From Patescibacteria group bacterium (GTDB taxonomy: Bacteria; Patescibacteriota; 4484-211), in the NCBI GenBank assembly GCA_018818265.1, contig JAHISN010000023.1, positions 1-34,494 of the forward strand: DNA of 34,494 nucleotides, given 5' to 3'. Positions 1,491-33,708 of this stretch are shown here, in pieces. A program made the position numbers and the translations under genes. The notes below the pieces were generated by a model. The model did no database searches and was not told the origin of the DNA. It saw only the letters and a program-made list of their open reading frames with translations. Every line of letters begins with the position of its first letter. The stretch's first letter is position 1.

Positions 1491-1511
1491 AACAAATCAA
1501 CAGGGGGAATG

Positions 1512-1643
1512 CTAAATGCCTTTAAAGAAGCGCATTTTCTTTTTTGTACGATCGGGAGTTGAAGAGGTTTTCCCCCTTTTTATTTTCCTGGAAGCCATGG
1601 AAACCTTTTCCACAACTTTCTCTAAATCACTCTTGTTGTCGGC
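1512..1643 (-). pseudogene. truncated duplicate of the 3' end of the YtxH-like gene at 3121-3528
   Basis: Reads ADNKSDLEKVVEKVSMASRKIKRGKTSSTPDRTKKKMRFFKGI* on the minus strand, near-identical to the C-terminus of 3121-3528; in-frame TAG directly upstream of the homology. Confidence 0.8.
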
Positions 1644-1761
1644 ATGCTATTGCAAAATGGGTTACTGCTTTCCCTGTTGCACTGAGACGTGGTATGTTAT
1701 GAAGCATAGCTTAGCCTAAAGGAGTAATGGATCTTCCGCTATAATTACTCCCACCCCAAAT

Positions 1762-3114
1762 ATGCACTACGGACTTGACTTCGGTACAACTAACTCAGCT
1801 ATTGCCATAAAACGTGATGACGTGGGAAATGTAGTTGTTGTCCCCGTAGATCCGCTTGCTGTGGGTCAGCAAATAATGCGCTCTCTACTGTATGTCAGAA
1901 AAAGGAAGATGCGACGTTTTGTGGGGCTTAGCGCTGTTCAAGAATACTTGCACGATAGTCGGAGTCGTAAACCAGCACGATATAAAGTTTTTGATACTGG
2001 CAGAAAAACTATTATCCGGATTCCAACTGGCCAGGGGGATTTCTGGAATTATGAAACTGATATTACTTATCGCGAAGATATTAACAAGCCCGGGCAATTA
2101 ATTCAGGCTTTAAAGACTTCCCTGAGAGAGGGGTTTGCTACGCAAATTGATCTTTTCGGAGAGAAACTTTCGCTGGAGGAGTTGATTGCTGTAATTTTGA
2201 GACAGATGAAAGAAACGGCGGATAATTATCTCGGTCGCCCGATTAATAAAGTTACTTTAGGAAGGCCAGTCCACTATGATAAGAAATCTAATGACCTTTA
2301 TATTGAAGAGCGTATGCGGCAAGCAGCAAAGTTAGCAGGGTTCACCCAAATTAGTTTTGTTCCCGAACCGGTAGCGGCCGCCTACGATTATTTGCAATCA
2401 CGCAAGTGTAAAGAAGATATTAAGATATTTGTTTTTGATTTTGGTGGTGGGACATTAGACTTTTGTTTGATGAACTCAAAACAGAATTCATCTCGTGTAA
2501 TAGCTACTGACGGCCTATCTATTGGTGGCGACCTTTTTAATGAGTTGATCATGTTGCATAAGGTTAGCCCTAATTTTGGAACTGAGCTGAATTACGGGCC
2601 AAAGCAATTACCTATGCCAGCTGGTCTTAAGCAAGGATTAAAGAAATGGTACGAAATTCAAGCCTTAAAATCACCTAACTTAAGTAAGTTCTTGAATGAA
2701 GTTGTGTCTCAGGTAAACGAACCGCGCTTGATTCAGAACTTAATTACTCTAATTGATTATGACTTAGGTTTTGAACTCTTCGAAGCTCTTGAAAAATCTA
2801 AAGTTGAGCTGTCAACTATGACAGAATCGGTTATTTCTTTTCATCAACATGACATAAATTTGGAGATCCCGATTACACGAGAGGAATTCGAAAAATTTAT
2901 TGGACCTAAAGTCAGTGAGATTGAGGTAAGTATCAATAATCTTTTTAGAAAGGCTGATCTTGAACCAGACGATATCGCCGTAGTTGTGTGTACAGGGGGA
3001 GCTTCATATACACCACTTATCCAATCTCGTTTGCGCAAGATTTTTACCAAGAGTAATATTGTTTACCACAACGTTTTTCAGGGAATCGCAGCCGGATTGG
3101 CTAGGGTTGAATAG
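1762..3114 (+). CDS. Hsp70-family (YegD-like) ATPase-domain protein
   Basis: GLDFGTTNSAIAI, FVFDFGGGTLDF, VVCTGGASYTPLI actin/Hsp70 ATPase motifs; short C-terminus without an evident substrate-binding domain. Confidence 0.85.
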   Translation: MHYGLDFGTTNSAIAIKRDDVGNVVVVPVDPLAVGQQIMRSLLYVRKRKMRRFVGLSAVQEYLHDSRSRKPARYKVFDTGRKTIIRIPTGQGDFWNYETDITYREDINKPGQLIQALKTSLREGFATQIDLFGEKLSLEELIAVILRQMKETADNYLGRPINKVTLGRPVHYDKKSNDLYIEERMRQAAKLAGFTQISFVPEPVAAAYDYLQSRKCKEDIKIFVFDFGGGTLDFCLMNSKQNSSRVIATDGLSIGGDLFNELIMLHKVSPNFGTELNYGPKQLPMPAGLKQGLKKWYEIQALKSPNLSKFLNEVVSQVNEPRLIQNLITLIDYDLGFELFEALEKSKVELSTMTESVISFHQHDINLEIPITREEFEKFIGPKVSEIEVSINNLFRKADLEPDDIAVVVCTGGASYTPLIQSRLRKIFTKSNIVYHNVFQGIAAGLARVE

Positions 3115-3120
3115 GGAAGT

Positions 3121-3528
3121 TTAAATGCCTTTAAAGAAGTGCATTTTCTTTTTTGCACGATCGGGAGTTGGAGAGGTTTTCCCCTTTTTTATTTTCTTGG
3201 TAGCCATGGAAACCTTTTCCACAACTTTCTCTAAATCAACCTTCTTGTCGGCAACTTTATCACCAACTTCATCGGCAACTTCGTGGACGACTTTGTCGGC
3301 CACCGTAGCGAGATGTTCCAATTTCTCTCGGTAATTGCAGGCAATGTCTTGAGATGTTTTCAGGGCATTATCCAGATTATCTTTAATTTTTCCACCCTTT
3401 TTTTTTAGTTCTTTGCGGAGTTTTTCGCCCGACTTGGGTGTATAAAGCAAAGCGGCCACTGCTCCCGCCGCCGCTCCAATAAATGCCCCTGTTAAGAATG
3501 TTTTGAAATGAGATTTTTCTTTATACAT
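3121..3528 (-). CDS. YtxH domain-containing protein
   Basis: FLTGAFIGAAAGAVAALLYTPKSGEKLRKELK is the typical YtxH N-terminus, followed by an amphipathic Lys-rich tail. Confidence 0.85.
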   Translation of the reverse strand: MYKEKSHFKTFLTGAFIGAAAGAVAALLYTPKSGEKLRKELKKKGGKIKDNLDNALKTSQDIACNYREKLEHLATVADKVVHEVADEVGDKVADKKVDLEKVVEKVSMATKKIKKGKTSPTPDRAKKKMHFFKGI

Positions 3529-19611: not shown

Positions 19612-19670
19612 ATAGGGTTTAACCCTATTACTACTTGAAATATCAAATGTTAATAGGGTTAAACCCTATT
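19612..19670. repeat. two copies of palindromic ATAGGGTTnAACCCTAT
   Basis: 19612-19628 (T centre) and 19652-19670 (A centre); the second reaches the stop codon of 19670-21022. Confidence 0.85.
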
Positions 19671-21022
19671 TAATCCAGAAGGCAATTCCCTTTAACCGCA
19701 ATAAAAGTTGTCCCTTGACAAGTATTGTCTGTAGGCGGACAGGCGCGACCTGTCTCAACCAGGGCAATTATCACCCAAAACACCAGGGCCAAATCGTTCT
19801 TAAAATACGGAACATCAACTAGTCCGTGCGCCAGGCAGTAAATTAGAGCGGCTAGAATCCCCCAGTTAATTTTACTCTTATTTCCCTTTTTCAATTCTCT
19901 ATAAAAAACCAGCGCAATGATTCCAATTATGGCTGTTAGTCCCAGTATTCCCGTTTCCGTCCAGAAATTGAGAACAAAATTGTGCGGATATTCCAGCGGC
20001 TCGGCGTCACAGGTATAGTACTGCGTGCTGTATAGCTCTTTGAATCCTGAAAGACCAGCCCCCAGCATAGGATTGTCTTTGAGAAGATTAACTGTTCCTT
20101 CCCACACACACAGGCGCGTCAACCCTGTTCCTCCCGGCCGCACCCAGGGATTGGCAACCTGAGGGGTTAGTTTGGGAATTATAGAGAGCAGGACAAAATG
20201 GCTGATCAGATAGAGCATTGCGCCAGTAATAATCAGCTTGCGAAGTAGTTTAAGAGACAAGAATCTGGCCGAAACCAAAAAGGCTATACTAACACCCAAT
20301 CCAACTAATCCTCCGGTGGATTTGGTGAGAATTAAAACGAAGGTTATTAAAATCAACACTAGGCCTTCAAATATCCGAGGCTTGCCTTTCCTGATAATCT
20401 TTCTATTCTTGGCAGAACTTCGTACCGCACATAGGGGCGGCCCCTTTGAAGGGGCCGCCCCTATTTCTAGTGCTAGTAGAAGCGCAATTATCGGCCCTAT
20501 ATACAGTGCAAGGGCATTCCCGCTATTGAACGTGGCGTGGGCGCGGCCACCAGTGGCTTCGTGTATAGCAAAAACTGGCCATTTAAACAAAATCTGCGAG
20601 ATACCTATTAGAGATAACCATAAAGCTGCACAAGTTAATGCCCAGATAATTTCTTTTCTCTTAATTATTCCACGTTTCAAACAATCGGTCAGAACATAAA
20701 AGAAAATAATCGGCTCAATAAAGTAAGCCTTAAAAATTCCCAAGCCCGCACGTAAGTCGGGGGTTTTGAAAAGCGAGATGATACAAGCAAGAAGCAAAAA
20801 TAGGGTTAAACCCTGAAAAGGGTTTAACCCTGTTTCAGCCGAGTCCGAGAAAGACTTTCCCTTCCCCATTCTAAAAACCAACCAAATCAATACTGTTAAT
20901 CCGATCAAATGTTCCAACAGCGTCGTCGGCAACCCCCAGTATGACCAGCGAATGATATAGAGGGGGGAGAGGAATATAGTCGTGAAAATTGAGATTTTTA
21001 GTAATTGCGATAGTGTTTTCAT
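19670..21022 (-). CDS. O-antigen ligase / Wzy-like polymerase
   Basis: Multi-TM protein with GGTGLTRLCVWEGTVNLLKDNPMLGAGLSGFKELY and EYPHNFVLNFWTETGILGL; contains in-frame palindromic elements. Confidence 0.82.
   Translation of the reverse strand: MKTLSQLLKISIFTTIFLSPLYIIRWSYWGLPTTLLEHLIGLTVLIWLVFRMGKGKSFSDSAETGLNPFQGLTLFLLLACIISLFKTPDLRAGLGIFKAYFIEPIIFFYVLTDCLKRGIIKRKEIIWALTCAALWLSLIGISQILFKWPVFAIHEATGGRAHATFNSGNALALYIGPIIALLLALEIGAAPSKGPPLCAVRSSAKNRKIIRKGKPRIFEGLVLILITFVLILTKSTGGLVGLGVSIAFLVSARFLSLKLLRKLIITGAMLYLISHFVLLSIIPKLTPQVANPWVRPGGTGLTRLCVWEGTVNLLKDNPMLGAGLSGFKELYSTQYYTCDAEPLEYPHNFVLNFWTETGILGLTAIIGIIALVFYRELKKGNKSKINWGILAALIYCLAHGLVDVPYFKNDLALVFWVIIALVETGRACPPTDNTCQGTTFIAVKGNCLLD
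20432..20465. repeat. 34-nt perfect inverted repeat inside the CDS
   Basis: ATAGGGGCGGCCCCTT-TG-AAGGGGCCGCCCCTAT: 16-bp stem, 2-nt loop. Confidence 0.9.
20802..20831. repeat. two AGGGTTnAACCCT palindromes inside the CDS
   Basis: 20802-20814 and 20819-20831; encode GLNPFQGLTLF on the minus strand. Confidence 0.85.
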
Positions 21023-21245: not shown

Positions 21246-22877
21246 CTAGGAGAAACTGCTATCTAAGCCATACGTAATTCCCAAGACGATCCACATCCAC
21301 TCCATCACCCACGGGTAAAATAGAGAATTAACAAACAGCGAGTGGACAAATAATGTGGGGATGGAAACAACGATTGTTAATAATAAGGCTTGAGACAAAC
21401 TAATCGATTTTGAATTTTTGATTTTCACTTTTAACCCGCCTAGCGGCGAGACGAGCTTTTCACCACGAAAAGCTTCGCTACGTGGCATGCTTTTAACTTT
21501 TAACTTGCGTAACCGCAACACCGACTCCAGCCAAATAGAACTATATAGTAGTAGGTATGAAATAAGCCCAAAAATACCCGTCGTTGCCCAAACAAAGAGC
21601 AGTGATGAGTCCGCGCCGGCGCCTGCATGCCCGCTAACTTCGGACAGTCCCTTCGCATTGCGAAAGTAGCCATAATGTTCTTGGGCGTACCTAAAGGAAT
21701 TGAAGCCAACTCCGGTGAGCCAGTTATCTTTAACAATTTCACCTGTCTTCAGCCAATCTTCAACGCGAGCCCTTGCCGTAATATCTAATTCCAAAGCGCC
21801 CACAACCCTCGTCCGTACGCGGGGGACAAAAAGAAATGCTAGAACAGCAAGCACGAAAAACACAACCAGTAACTTGCGAGATTTAAGTATTCCCAGGCTG
21901 ATAACAGCAACAGCGAATGCCAAATAGGTACTGCGAGAGAAAGTGAGAAGACAGCAGACAGCTGACAGTAGGCAGCTGACGAGTAACCATTGACCATCTT
22001 GCCACGTTAATCCGCCAGCAGCGGATTTTACGTGGTGACCTTTGACCATTGACACTGTACTGACACGCTTCAGCGTGTTATCTTCTTGGGTAACAGACTG
22101 AAGTCTGTCAGTACAGGCCAGCTTCTCCCAGACTGGACTGACAAGGACGTCAAACGTCCCATGGCTTCCACGCGATGCCGCATGGCGTCGCAGCTTGTTA
22201 CTATTTCGGGTAAGCAGCAATGACACCGCCAGAACAAAACCTAAAATCAGAAAAATCCCTGCAAAGTTGGGATCAAAAAATGTAGAAAGCAAACGGTAAT
22301 AGTGCGGGTCCCAGCCGTGCTGGATGTATTTAGAAAAATCTGGAAAGAGGAGAAATTGGACAAGCCCGAGGAGAGAGAAGATTGTTATGGAAAGAAGAAG
22401 ATAACTCGAAATCCGTAAAGCGTAATTCGTAATTCGTAATTCATTACTCATAATTCGCGCTTCGTTTTTATCTAAAGCAGTTTCACCCGCACTCAATTTC
22501 GTTTCATTTCCTTCCTTAACTACAGAAAACACAATCGGGTACAGAAAGGCATACTGCACCCATCGCCACCAATAGAGACCGCTAACAATAAACTCGGCTA
22601 TACCTAGCCAGCGAAAACTATTCAATAAACTTAAGAAACTTATTGCCGTAAATAGCAGGATCAAACCGCTAAATGGAGGAAGGTCTAATTTCTTTCTAAT
22701 CGCCAATTGCCGTGTGAGCCAGATAAAAATTAAGAAGGGGATAAGCAAATCGTTATAATAAACGGTTATGTCAGGCAGATTTACCAATCCCAGAGGAATC
22801 TTGGAGAATTGGCCTAGAGGCAAGACTAAGATAAGAATGTATAGTAACAACTTTTCTAGCTTCATGCTGTCTCCCAT
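21246..22877 (-). CDS. O-antigen ligase / Wzy-like membrane protein
   Basis: Multi-TM; TFSRSTYLAFAVAVISL and TGEIVKDNWLTGVGFNSFRYAQEHYG; long repeat-derived loop. Confidence 0.82.
   Translation of the reverse strand: MGDSMKLEKLLLYILILVLPLGQFSKIPLGLVNLPDITVYYNDLLIPFLIFIWLTRQLAIRKKLDLPPFSGLILLFTAISFLSLLNSFRWLGIAEFIVSGLYWWRWVQYAFLYPIVFSVVKEGNETKLSAGETALDKNEARIMSNELRITNYALRISSYLLLSITIFSLLGLVQFLLFPDFSKYIQHGWDPHYYRLLSTFFDPNFAGIFLILGFVLAVSLLLTRNSNKLRRHAASRGSHGTFDVLVSPVWEKLACTDRLQSVTQEDNTLKRVSTVSMVKGHHVKSAAGGLTWQDGQWLLVSCLLSAVCCLLTFSRSTYLAFAVAVISLGILKSRKLLVVFFVLAVLAFLFVPRVRTRVVGALELDITARARVEDWLKTGEIVKDNWLTGVGFNSFRYAQEHYGYFRNAKGLSEVSGHAGAGADSSLLFVWATTGIFGLISYLLLYSSIWLESVLRLRKLKVKSMPRSEAFRGEKLVSPLGGLKVKIKNSKSISLSQALLLTIVVSIPTLFVHSLFVNSLFYPWVMEWMWIVLGITYGLDSSFS
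22002..22186. repeat. cluster of hairpin elements inside the O-antigen ligase-like CDS
   Basis: 22002-22035 hairpin; 22056-22080 and 22091-22115 inverted 25-bp copies; GGACGT-CAA-ACGTCC; 22165-22186 also found at 31723-31744. Confidence 0.85.
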
Positions 22878-22917
22878 TTTACCACTCTATAGATTTTAAC
22901 CCTGAATGCTCTTAAAT

Positions 22918-22947
22918 AGGGTTTAACCCTATTCAGGGTTAAACCCT
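22918..22947. repeat. two AGGGTTnAACCCT palindromes
   Basis: 22918-22930 and 22935-22947; extra half-site AACCCTGAA near 22898. Confidence 0.85.
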
Positions 22948-23012
22948 GTTTCTAACTCTTTACGACTCTATAGAAATTTTCAGACCTGTTTGGTAAAATA
23001 AGTTTGGAACTC

Positions 23013-24352: not shown

Positions 24353-24452
24353 GCGGGCTTACCAGCCTCGCCTAGCGAGTCTAGGCACACCCGCGGTGTC
24401 TTCTCTTGCTTTGGCGGAGCTGACCTGCCTCGCCTGCGGCGACGCAAGGCGG
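24353..24452. repeat. GC-rich palindromic intergenic repeats downstream of the MFS gene
   Basis: CACCGCGGG...CCCGCGGTG inverted repeat; CCTGCCTCGCCTGCGGCGACGCAAGGCGG at 24424-24452 matches (reverse complement) the element in the split tRNA at 33576-33604. Confidence 0.7.
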
Positions 24453-29264: not shown

Positions 29265-29292
29265 GCGGCAGAATTTCTAAGAAGCTTCAAAT

Positions 29293-29341
29293 AGGGTTCA
29301 ACCCTCAAATAGGGTTCAACCCTCAAAGAGGGTTGAACCCT
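29293..29341. repeat. three 18-bp-period copies of AGGGTTSAACCCT
   Basis: 29293-29305, 29311-29323, 29329-29341. Confidence 0.9.
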
Positions 29342-29370
29342 AATAAGATTAGCGTCATTGAGGGGGAACA

Positions 29371-31722: not shown

Positions 31723-31814
31723 CTTCCACGCGATGCCGCATGGCTGTCGTAGCCTAGCGACTTAATAATGTGATCTCTCCTGATGCGGGTCTAAAGACCC
31801 GCCGCTACAAGTGC
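31723..31814. repeat. REP-like elements between ABC ATPase and permease genes
   Basis: CTTCCACGCGATGCCGCATGGC (31723-31744, exact match to 22165-22186); GCGGGTCT-AA-AGACCCGC (31785-31802) followed by CGCTACA-N5-TCATGG. Confidence 0.8.
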
Positions 31815-33355: not shown

Positions 33356-33409
33356 TGTACGCACCCTCCAATTTTAACAGAAAAAAGTGCTGTGGTAAAA
33401 TGAAGCGGC

Positions 33410-33476
33410 GGGTCCGTAGCTCAATGGTAGACCTGCCTGCCGGTTTACCCGCCTCTGGAGGGCAGGCAGGGCAGTT
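33410..33476 (+). pseudogene. 5' portion of a split or disrupted tRNA (acceptor + D-arm), interrupted by a hairpin element
   Basis: GGGTCCG-TA-GCTC-AATGGTA-GA | 39-nt hairpin 33432-33470 | GCAGTT(GC); removing the hairpin restores the D-stem GAGC. Confidence 0.7.
33432..33470. repeat. GC-rich hairpin element inside the tRNA 5' half
   Basis: CCTGCCTGCC ... GGCAGGCAGG, 10-bp perfect terminal stem. Confidence 0.85.
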
Positions 33477-33551
33477 GCTCCGTTAGCTCAGTGGTAGAGC
33501 AGTTGCCTCTTAAGCAATTGGCCGCAGGTTCAAATCCTGCACGGAGCACCA
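33477..33551 (+). tRNA. tRNA-Lys (CTT), CCA encoded
   Basis: GCTCCGT acceptor, GCTC/GAGC, TTGC-CTCTTAA-GCAA, GCAGG-TTCAAAT-CCTGC, ACGGAGC-A-CCA. Confidence 0.93.
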
Positions 33552-33570
33552 GGAAATTCAATGATTTGTT

Positions 33571-33627
33571 GCGCGCCCGCCTTGCGTCGCTACGGCGAGG
33601 CAGGTTCGACTCGCGCCGGGCCCACCA
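33571..33627 (+). pseudogene. 3' portion of the split or disrupted tRNA (T-arm + acceptor + CCA), interrupted by a hairpin element
   Basis: GCGCG | element 33576-33604 | TTCGACT-CGCGC-CGGGCCC-A-CCA; CGGGCCC pairs with GGGTCCG at 33410-33416. Confidence 0.7.
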
Positions 33628-33708
33628 TGTCGTTCCCACTGTCGTTCGCGAACGACGTGGGTTCGCGAACGCCGCGGCCTGCCATATACTTCCTTATCTT
33701 CTCTAAGG

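What the first reader, a model, noticed from the sequence alone, without database searches (positions are those of the whole stretch)
33410..33627. Two halves of one tRNA gene flank a complete tRNA-Lys, each half interrupted by a GC-rich hairpin
Seen in sequence: 33410-33416 GGGTCCG and 33617-33623 CGGGCCC pair over all 7 acceptor positions (one G-T wobble), and the 3' part carries discriminator A and CCA. The 5' half runs GGGTCCG-TA-GCTC-AATGGTA-GA, then a 39-nt hairpin, then GC; removing the hairpin gives GAGC, completing the D-stem, and the next bases (GCAGTTGC) match the same region of the neighbouring tRNA-Lys. In the 3' half, GCGCG (33571-33575) is separated from TTCGACT-CGCGC by 33576-33604; removal restores a perfect T-stem. 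The second insert is supported independently because nearly the same sequence occurs at 24424-24452, although its 5' boundary is uncertain by 1 nt. Inference: palindromic elements inserted into a tRNA gene and the anticodon arm was replaced by, or separated by, a whole tRNA-Lys. It may be a decayed pseudogene, split halves, or an RNA-level excision system. I could not reconstruct an anticodon arm, so function is unproven.
Basis: partly seen in the sequence, partly recalled or inferred. Interest (0 to 1): 0.85.

Follow-up and report, generated by a model that had tools for sequence, protein, structure and literature searches.

The report
tRNA replaced inside its own gene
In a Patescibacteria genome a lysine tRNA gene sits inside the two dead halves of another lysine tRNA gene, and the same layout recurs at other tRNA genes in these bacteria, often with a small GIY-YIG nuclease gene, which suggests little-described selfish DNA that breaks tRNA genes and supplies a replacement.

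Summary
Lys(CTT) halves at 33410-33431/33471-33478 and 33571-33575/33605-33627 flank a complete, different tRNA-Lys(CTT) at 33477-33551. Each half carries a GC-rich hairpin insert. With the inserts set aside, the halves match an intact tRNA-Lys(CTT) of another genome of the phylum at 29/30 and 26/27 aligned bases. A mechanical scan of 93% of the genome found such paired halves at three loci only, and none in a reversed control. The halves are most likely not a working split tRNA.

The explanation lies outside the window. This genome and its relatives carry many small GIY-YIG ORFs. In 35 of 81 sampled loci one lies within 600 nt of an intact tRNA, always on the same strand. In many, the far side of the ORF holds a hairpin-interrupted fragment of the same tRNA. 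At least three further loci (L181 Val, C28 Ala, L215 Phe) share the window layout.

Best reading: GIY-YIG homing-type elements invade tRNA genes, bring a replacement, and leave palindrome-disarmed halves. The window is a copy that has lost its ORF. Mobility and cleavage are inferred, not shown. No description was found in the paper library searched.

The parts
33391..33401 (+). TGTGGTAAAAT, promoter -10-like motif of the tRNA-Lys locus; the outer 5' half starts 8 nt after it
   Evidence: Sequence. The same motif precedes the intact Lys in relative G002 (TGTGGTAAAATAAATCGGTAAGTGCTCCG). Inference, no transcription data.
33410..33431 (+). outer tRNA-Lys 5' half, first part: acceptor 5' strand, D-stem and D-loop (GGGTCCGTAGCTCAATGGTAGA)
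   Evidence: With 33471-33478, 29 of 30 bases match intact tRNA-Lys(CTT) of G011, plus one 1-nt gap
33432..33470 (+). palindromic insert 1 in the D-stem of the dead half
   Evidence: Hairpin -21 kcal/mol; 97% copy at G000:C55:559-596(-), inside a dead tRNA-Ser 5' half
33471..33478 (+). outer 5' half resumed: end of D-stem and anticodon stem 5' strand (GCAGTTGC); last two bases shared with the inner tRNA
33477..33551 (+). inner intact tRNA-Lys(CTT), the only Lys-CTT found in the genome sequence read
   Evidence: ARAGORN, Rfam RF00005 77.5 bits; 94% and 89% identical orthologues in G001 and G002 of the same family
33552..33570 (+). 19-nt spacer; no recognisable anticodon 3' arm
33571..33575 (+). 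outer 3' half, T-stem 5' strand (GCGCG)
33576..33604 (+). palindromic insert 2 in the T-arm of the dead half
   Evidence: Hairpin -15.3 kcal/mol; about 90% match at window 24423-24452(-)
33605..33627 (+). outer 3' half: T-loop, T-stem 3' strand, acceptor 3' strand, A, CCA
   Evidence: With 33571-33575, 26 of 27 aligned bases match the G011 tRNA-Lys(CTT)
24423..24452 (-). second copy of palindromic insert 2, between ORFs

Best explanation
33410-33627 is the footprint of a tRNA-replacing element. A tRNA-Lys(CTT) gene at its own promoter (outer type, GGGTCCG/CGGGCCC) was opened in its anticodon arm and now surrounds a complete tRNA-Lys(CTT) of different sequence (inner type), which serves as the Lys-CTT gene. 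The displaced halves are dead and are broken further by palindromes. The agent is inferred from comparable loci to be a small element coding for a GIY-YIG homing-type endonuclease. It cuts a tRNA gene, is copied in by recombination, and brings a replacement 5' part, 3' part or whole tRNA, so the host keeps a working tRNA. In the window the nuclease gene has been lost. Shown: the anatomy; the same anatomy with the ORF at other loci; clustering of the association on the protein tree. Inferred: cleavage of tRNA genes, homing, direction of events, and that this particular locus ever held the ORF.
For: Outer halves are one tRNA-Lys(CTT), and paired halves are rare in the genome. Own genome: 15 GIY-YIG hits, of which one is UvrC-like (455 aa) and about 12 lie beside intact or broken tRNAs: C10 intact Pro-ORF-broken Pro; C33 broken Ser-ORF-broken Ser-intact Ser; C70 broken Ser-ORF-intact Ser-ORF-Ser 3' end; C28 outer Ala halves (G3:U70) around ORF, Ile and Ala. 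Relatives: 35 of 81 loci have an intact tRNA within 600 nt, all 35 on the same strand. Of 20 loci with a tRNA downstream, 11 score above all or all but one of 76 controls for a fragment of that tRNA upstream of the ORF, and three more rank behind two or three. L181 has Val halves around ORF + a different complete Val(GAC); L215 (same family as the window) has Phe halves around ORF + a complete Phe whose acceptor stem differs. Protein tree: 31 of 44 tRNA-associated on one side, 3 of 35 on the other; 13 label changes against 25.7 shuffled, 0 of 500 as low. Relative G002 with no small GIY-YIG hit: 0 of 33 tRNAs have a fragment of themselves within 1 kb; G001 2 of 35; own 6 of 48; reversed control 0. 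Precedent: phage GIY-YIG SegB cleaves inside tRNA genes and drives tandem tRNA-segB repeats (PMC13096335).
Against: There is no GIY-YIG ORF in the window locus. Syntenic Lys in G001 and G002 is of inner type, so the outer type is not obviously the ancestral gene here, and the order of events is uncertain. Many inner tRNAs elsewhere equal the remnant sequence, so it is unclear why the nuclease would spare them. Some tRNA-adjacent ORFs show no detectable remnant. The G002/G001/own contrast is small. Palindrome enrichment in remnants was judged on 23 hand-read remnants.
Confidence: 0.6

Rival explanations
1. Plain duplication and decay: tandem tRNA-Lys genes rearranged by unequal recombination and deletion, leaving halves around one survivor. 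Mobile palindromic repeats then landed in the dead parts. No nuclease element took part at this locus.
For: No ORF at the locus. Palindromic repeats are common between genes (2.1 hairpins per kb outside ORFs). G001 has a broken Lys 5' copy beside an intact Lys with no ORF between them. C32, C55 and C74 show similar ORF-less cases.
Against: Getting one tRNA cleanly between the two halves of another needs several precise deletions, yet the layout recurs with an ORF inside at L181, L215 and C28. Many remnants are otherwise identical to the intact copy, which is not typical of slow decay.
Confidence: 0.28
2. The outer halves form a functional tRNA after RNA-level removal of the hairpins and the inner tRNA (split or intron-containing tRNA).
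For: Acceptor and T-stem pairing is intact after removal, and point decay is nearly absent.
Against: No anticodon 3' arm can be found. No intron family matches the locus, whereas the genome's real intron, in tRNA-Asn at C69, scores 81 bits. Comparable remnants elsewhere lie beside intact copies. A bacterial splicing machinery for such inserts is not known (own knowledge).
Confidence: 0.04
3. Footprint of a tyrosine-recombinase island that used the tRNA anticodon loop as attachment site.
For: tRNA genes are classic integration sites and anticodon-loop attachment sites are known (own knowledge).
Against: Such integration restores a hybrid tRNA from the native 5' half and island 3' half; here the intact tRNA shares neither acceptor strand with the halves. 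The genes flanking the tRNAs are an ABC transporter and a PDDEXK nuclease; the genome's three integrase hits lie on other contigs.
Confidence: 0.05

Closest known systems
SegB, free-standing GIY-YIG homing endonuclease of T-even phages (PMC13096335)
   Same: Small-domain GIY-YIG nuclease beside tRNA genes; reported to cut inside tRNA genes and to create tandem tRNA-segB repeats
   Different: Phage-borne, in phage tRNA arrays. In the passages read, no interrupted tRNA halves around a replacement tRNA were described. Here the setting is bacterial chromosomes.
Fungal mitochondrial mobile ORFs (mORFs), e.g. Allomyces atp6 and Glomus atp6, atp9, cox2, nad3 (PMC3630166)
   Same: A homing endonuclease gene (GIY-YIG in atp9) invades a gene, carries a replacement end of that gene, and leaves the displaced native end as a remnant
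   Different: Protein genes of mitochondria, C-terminal replacement only. Here tRNA genes of bacteria, with replacement of the 5' part, 3' part or the whole gene.
Insertion sequences in rRNA genes of CPR bacteria (PMC11270868)
   Same: Same bacterial group, structural RNA genes invaded by homing-endonuclease elements, including GIY-YIG ones that are not introns
   Different: rRNA genes, mostly introns with LAGLIDADG nucleases; the main text does not mention tRNA. No displaced halves.
Bacterial group I introns in tRNA genes (PMC3984707)
   Same: Anticodon-region invasion of tRNA genes
   Different: Self-splicing restores the tRNA. No intron match at the window locus; one exists in tRNA-Asn at C69.

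Membership tests
GIY-YIG homing-element footprint (SegB-like / mORF-like) | GIY-YIG endonuclease gene at the locus | tested here: not met
   No GIY-YIG ORF among one search hits on C61. Met at comparable loci. The window is therefore described as working like, or deriving from, such an element, not as a complete member.
GIY-YIG homing-element footprint (SegB-like / mORF-like) | Displaced part of the target gene beside a replacement part | tested here: met
   Outer Lys halves around inner Lys
GIY-YIG homing-element footprint (SegB-like / mORF-like) | Site-specific cleavage of the uninvaded gene and copying into it | not testable with these tools
   Needs biochemistry and genetic crosses
GIY-YIG homing-element footprint (SegB-like / mORF-like) | Empty site in relatives | tested here: inconclusive
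   G002 has an intact Lys without halves at the same place, but of inner type
Group I intron in tRNA | Catalytic intron core | tested here: not met
   Rfam scan at permissive threshold shows no intron at 33360-33700
Split / permuted tRNA | All arms encoded in the pieces, including the anticodon arm | tested here: not met
   No anticodon 3' strand in 33552-33570 pairing with the 5' strand
tRNA-integrated genomic island | Integrase and attachment repeats restoring a hybrid tRNA | tested here: not met
   Inner tRNA acceptor differs from both halves; no integrase hit on this contig

The most novel reading that the evidence does not exclude
Natural 'home and rescue' elements: a GIY-YIG nuclease breaks an essential tRNA gene while the element supplies a complete tRNA of the same isotype with altered sequence (Lys in the window, Val in L181, Phe in L215, Ala in C28), so that the tRNA gene itself is exchanged between lineages; the displaced copy is disarmed by a palindrome.
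Probability: 0.25. Interest if true: 0.85.

Novelty: new variant of a known kind. Interest (0 to 1): 0.6.

Why it matters
If the reading holds, Patescibacteria carry chromosomal selfish elements of a few hundred bases whose target is the tRNA gene set and which persist by rebuilding the gene they break. That would explain many tRNA fragments in these genomes and give a route by which tRNA genes are replaced in reduced genomes, a bacterial tRNA counterpart of fungal mitochondrial mORFs. It is testable: the proteins are under about 110 aa, the predicted targets are single tRNA genes, and intact and invaded versions are both available.

Tried and rejected
Search for a hidden tRNA-Glu(TTC), which ARAGORN does not list: nothing found. 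Named genome collection scan with one GIY-YIG protein: only three hits, but two carry the same anatomy. Phylum-wide pattern search for an intact outer-type Lys: only G011 among 287 genomes, so its origin stays open. Literature searches for tRNA-replacing GIY-YIG elements or tRNA-borne palindromes in CPR found none; the library lacks most subscription papers and preprints. The idea that palindromes protect the element from its own nuclease was considered and not adopted, because the intact copy often keeps the same sequence uninterrupted. Cutting tRNA intervals out of the tyrosine-recombinase idea: rejected on anatomy and lack of an integrase nearby.

Full report
Observation. The window is contig C61 of a Patescibacteria-like genome (1.19 Mb, 89 contigs; the group is inferred from GIY-YIG relatives named Patescibacteria and Candidatus Woesebacteria). 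The sequence at 33410-33627 is as described. A complete tRNA-Lys(CTT), 33477-33551, lies between a 5' half and a 3' half whose acceptor strands pair 7/7. Each half holds a GC-rich hairpin. ARAGORN and Rfam see only the inner tRNA.

The halves are one gene. Without the inserts they align to an intact tRNA-Lys(CTT) of genome G011 of the same phylum at 29/30 and 26/27 bases. The inner tRNA differs in acceptor and T arms but is nearly the same in the D arm and anticodon 5' strand. Inner-type Lys is the type in the same family: 94% in G001 and 89% in G002, next to tRNA-Val as here. The outer type is uncommon: the strict pattern was found in 1 of 287 genomes.

Not chance. In 1.11 Mb of the genome, paired halves outside intact tRNAs occur at the window, at C28 and at C69; the reversed sequence gives none. 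C69 is a tRNA-Asn with a group I intron (RF00028, E 4.5e-21), the only Asn tRNA seen. C28 has two 5' halves and one 3' half of an outer tRNA with a G3:U70 pair, the tRNA-Ala hallmark (own knowledge), around a GIY-YIG ORF, tRNA-Ile and tRNA-Ala(TGC).

The wider pattern. Broken tRNA copies occur beside intact ones at many loci of this genome, and small GIY-YIG ORFs sit with them. C10 reads intact Pro, ORF, then a Pro remnant with a D-loop hairpin. C33 reads Ser remnant with a 20-nt palindrome, ORF, another remnant, intact Ser. C70 has ORFs on both sides of an intact Ser with remnants beyond. In relatives the same reading frame family shows the same anatomy: Ile L197, Ser L198, Tyr L185, Asp L180, Cys L174, Ser L188, Gly L238, Phe L215, Val L181. 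L181 and L215 have both halves of an outer tRNA around ORF plus a complete, different tRNA of the same isotype: the window layout with the ORF present.

Numbers. Of 81 sampled GIY-YIG loci (long UvrC-like frames left out), 35 have an intact tRNA within 600 nt, all on the ORF's strand. For 20 with a tRNA downstream, the 500 nt upstream of the ORF were tested for a fragment of that tRNA: 11 rank first or second against 76 other loci, three more third or fourth. On a protein tree the association is clustered: 31/44 against 3/35, 13 changes against 25.7 in shuffles. Caveats: few columns, weak deep support, and loci were taken from a list ordered by E-value, not at random. In G002, where the family search gave only a UvrC-like hit, 0 of 33 tRNAs have a fragment of themselves nearby; G001 2 of 35; own genome 6 of 48. 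That contrast is in the expected direction but small.

Hairpins. Of 23 hand-read remnants 13 contain a strict hairpin (6-bp perfect GC-rich stem), against 2.1 hairpins per kb outside ORFs, which predicts about three in their 1.5 kb. In L215 and L238 the palindrome sits at the same place in the 5' and the 3' remnant, so there it was present before, or copied with, the rearrangement. Remnants are otherwise often identical to the intact tRNA. Whether the palindromes are part of the mechanism or secondary is unresolved.

Mechanism. Shown: anatomy, recurrence, co-orientation, tree clustering. Inferred: the ORFs are homing endonucleases that cut tRNA genes; recombination copies the element in; the replacement keeps the tRNA supply; the window lost its ORF. 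Precedents are SegB, which cuts in tRNA genes and makes tandem tRNA-segB repeats (PMC13096335), and fungal mitochondrial mORFs that replace the end of the gene they invade (PMC3630166). The CPR rRNA insertion study does not mention tRNA (PMC11270868).

Verdict. The window locus is a scar, most likely of a tRNA-replacing GIY-YIG element (0.6). The individual locus is modest; the recurrent system behind it is the interesting part, and I found no description of it in the library searched, which is incomplete.

Noticed in passing
G000:C69:8952-9321 (L134): tRNA-Asn(GTT)-like gene interrupted in the anticodon loop by a group I intron (RF00028, 81 bits); no other Asn tRNA was found in the genome sequence read.
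   Followed up: partly
G000 genome: No tRNA-Glu(TTC) among the tRNAs found; only Glu(CTC). It may lie in unassembled sequence or be interrupted.
   Followed up: partly
window 19612-19669, 20798-20836, 22914-22952, 29289-29345: A different, AT-rich palindromic family (AATAGGGTTTAACCCTATT type) in several copies between genes.
   Followed up: no
window 1505-1644 and 3114-3253: 140-nt direct repeat, 91% identical, at both ends of the ORF 1762-3114.
   Followed up: no
window 22165-22186 and 31723-31744: 22-nt identical repeat CTTCCACGCGATGCCGCATGGC, 9.6 kb apart.
   Followed up: no
L038 1100-1500 (G001 Lys locus): Broken tRNA-Lys 5' copy with an insert in the D-loop that contains TCAATGAGGTCC...GACCGAATTAGTCCGCC, a repeat also inside tRNA-Ser remnants at G000:C33 and C55.
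   Followed up: partly
G000:C84:7676-7969(-) and C70:5360-5653: Near-identical GIY-YIG ORF plus tRNA-Ser 3' end at two places; at C84 no intact tRNA-Ser lies beside it, as if the element had moved.
   Followed up: no
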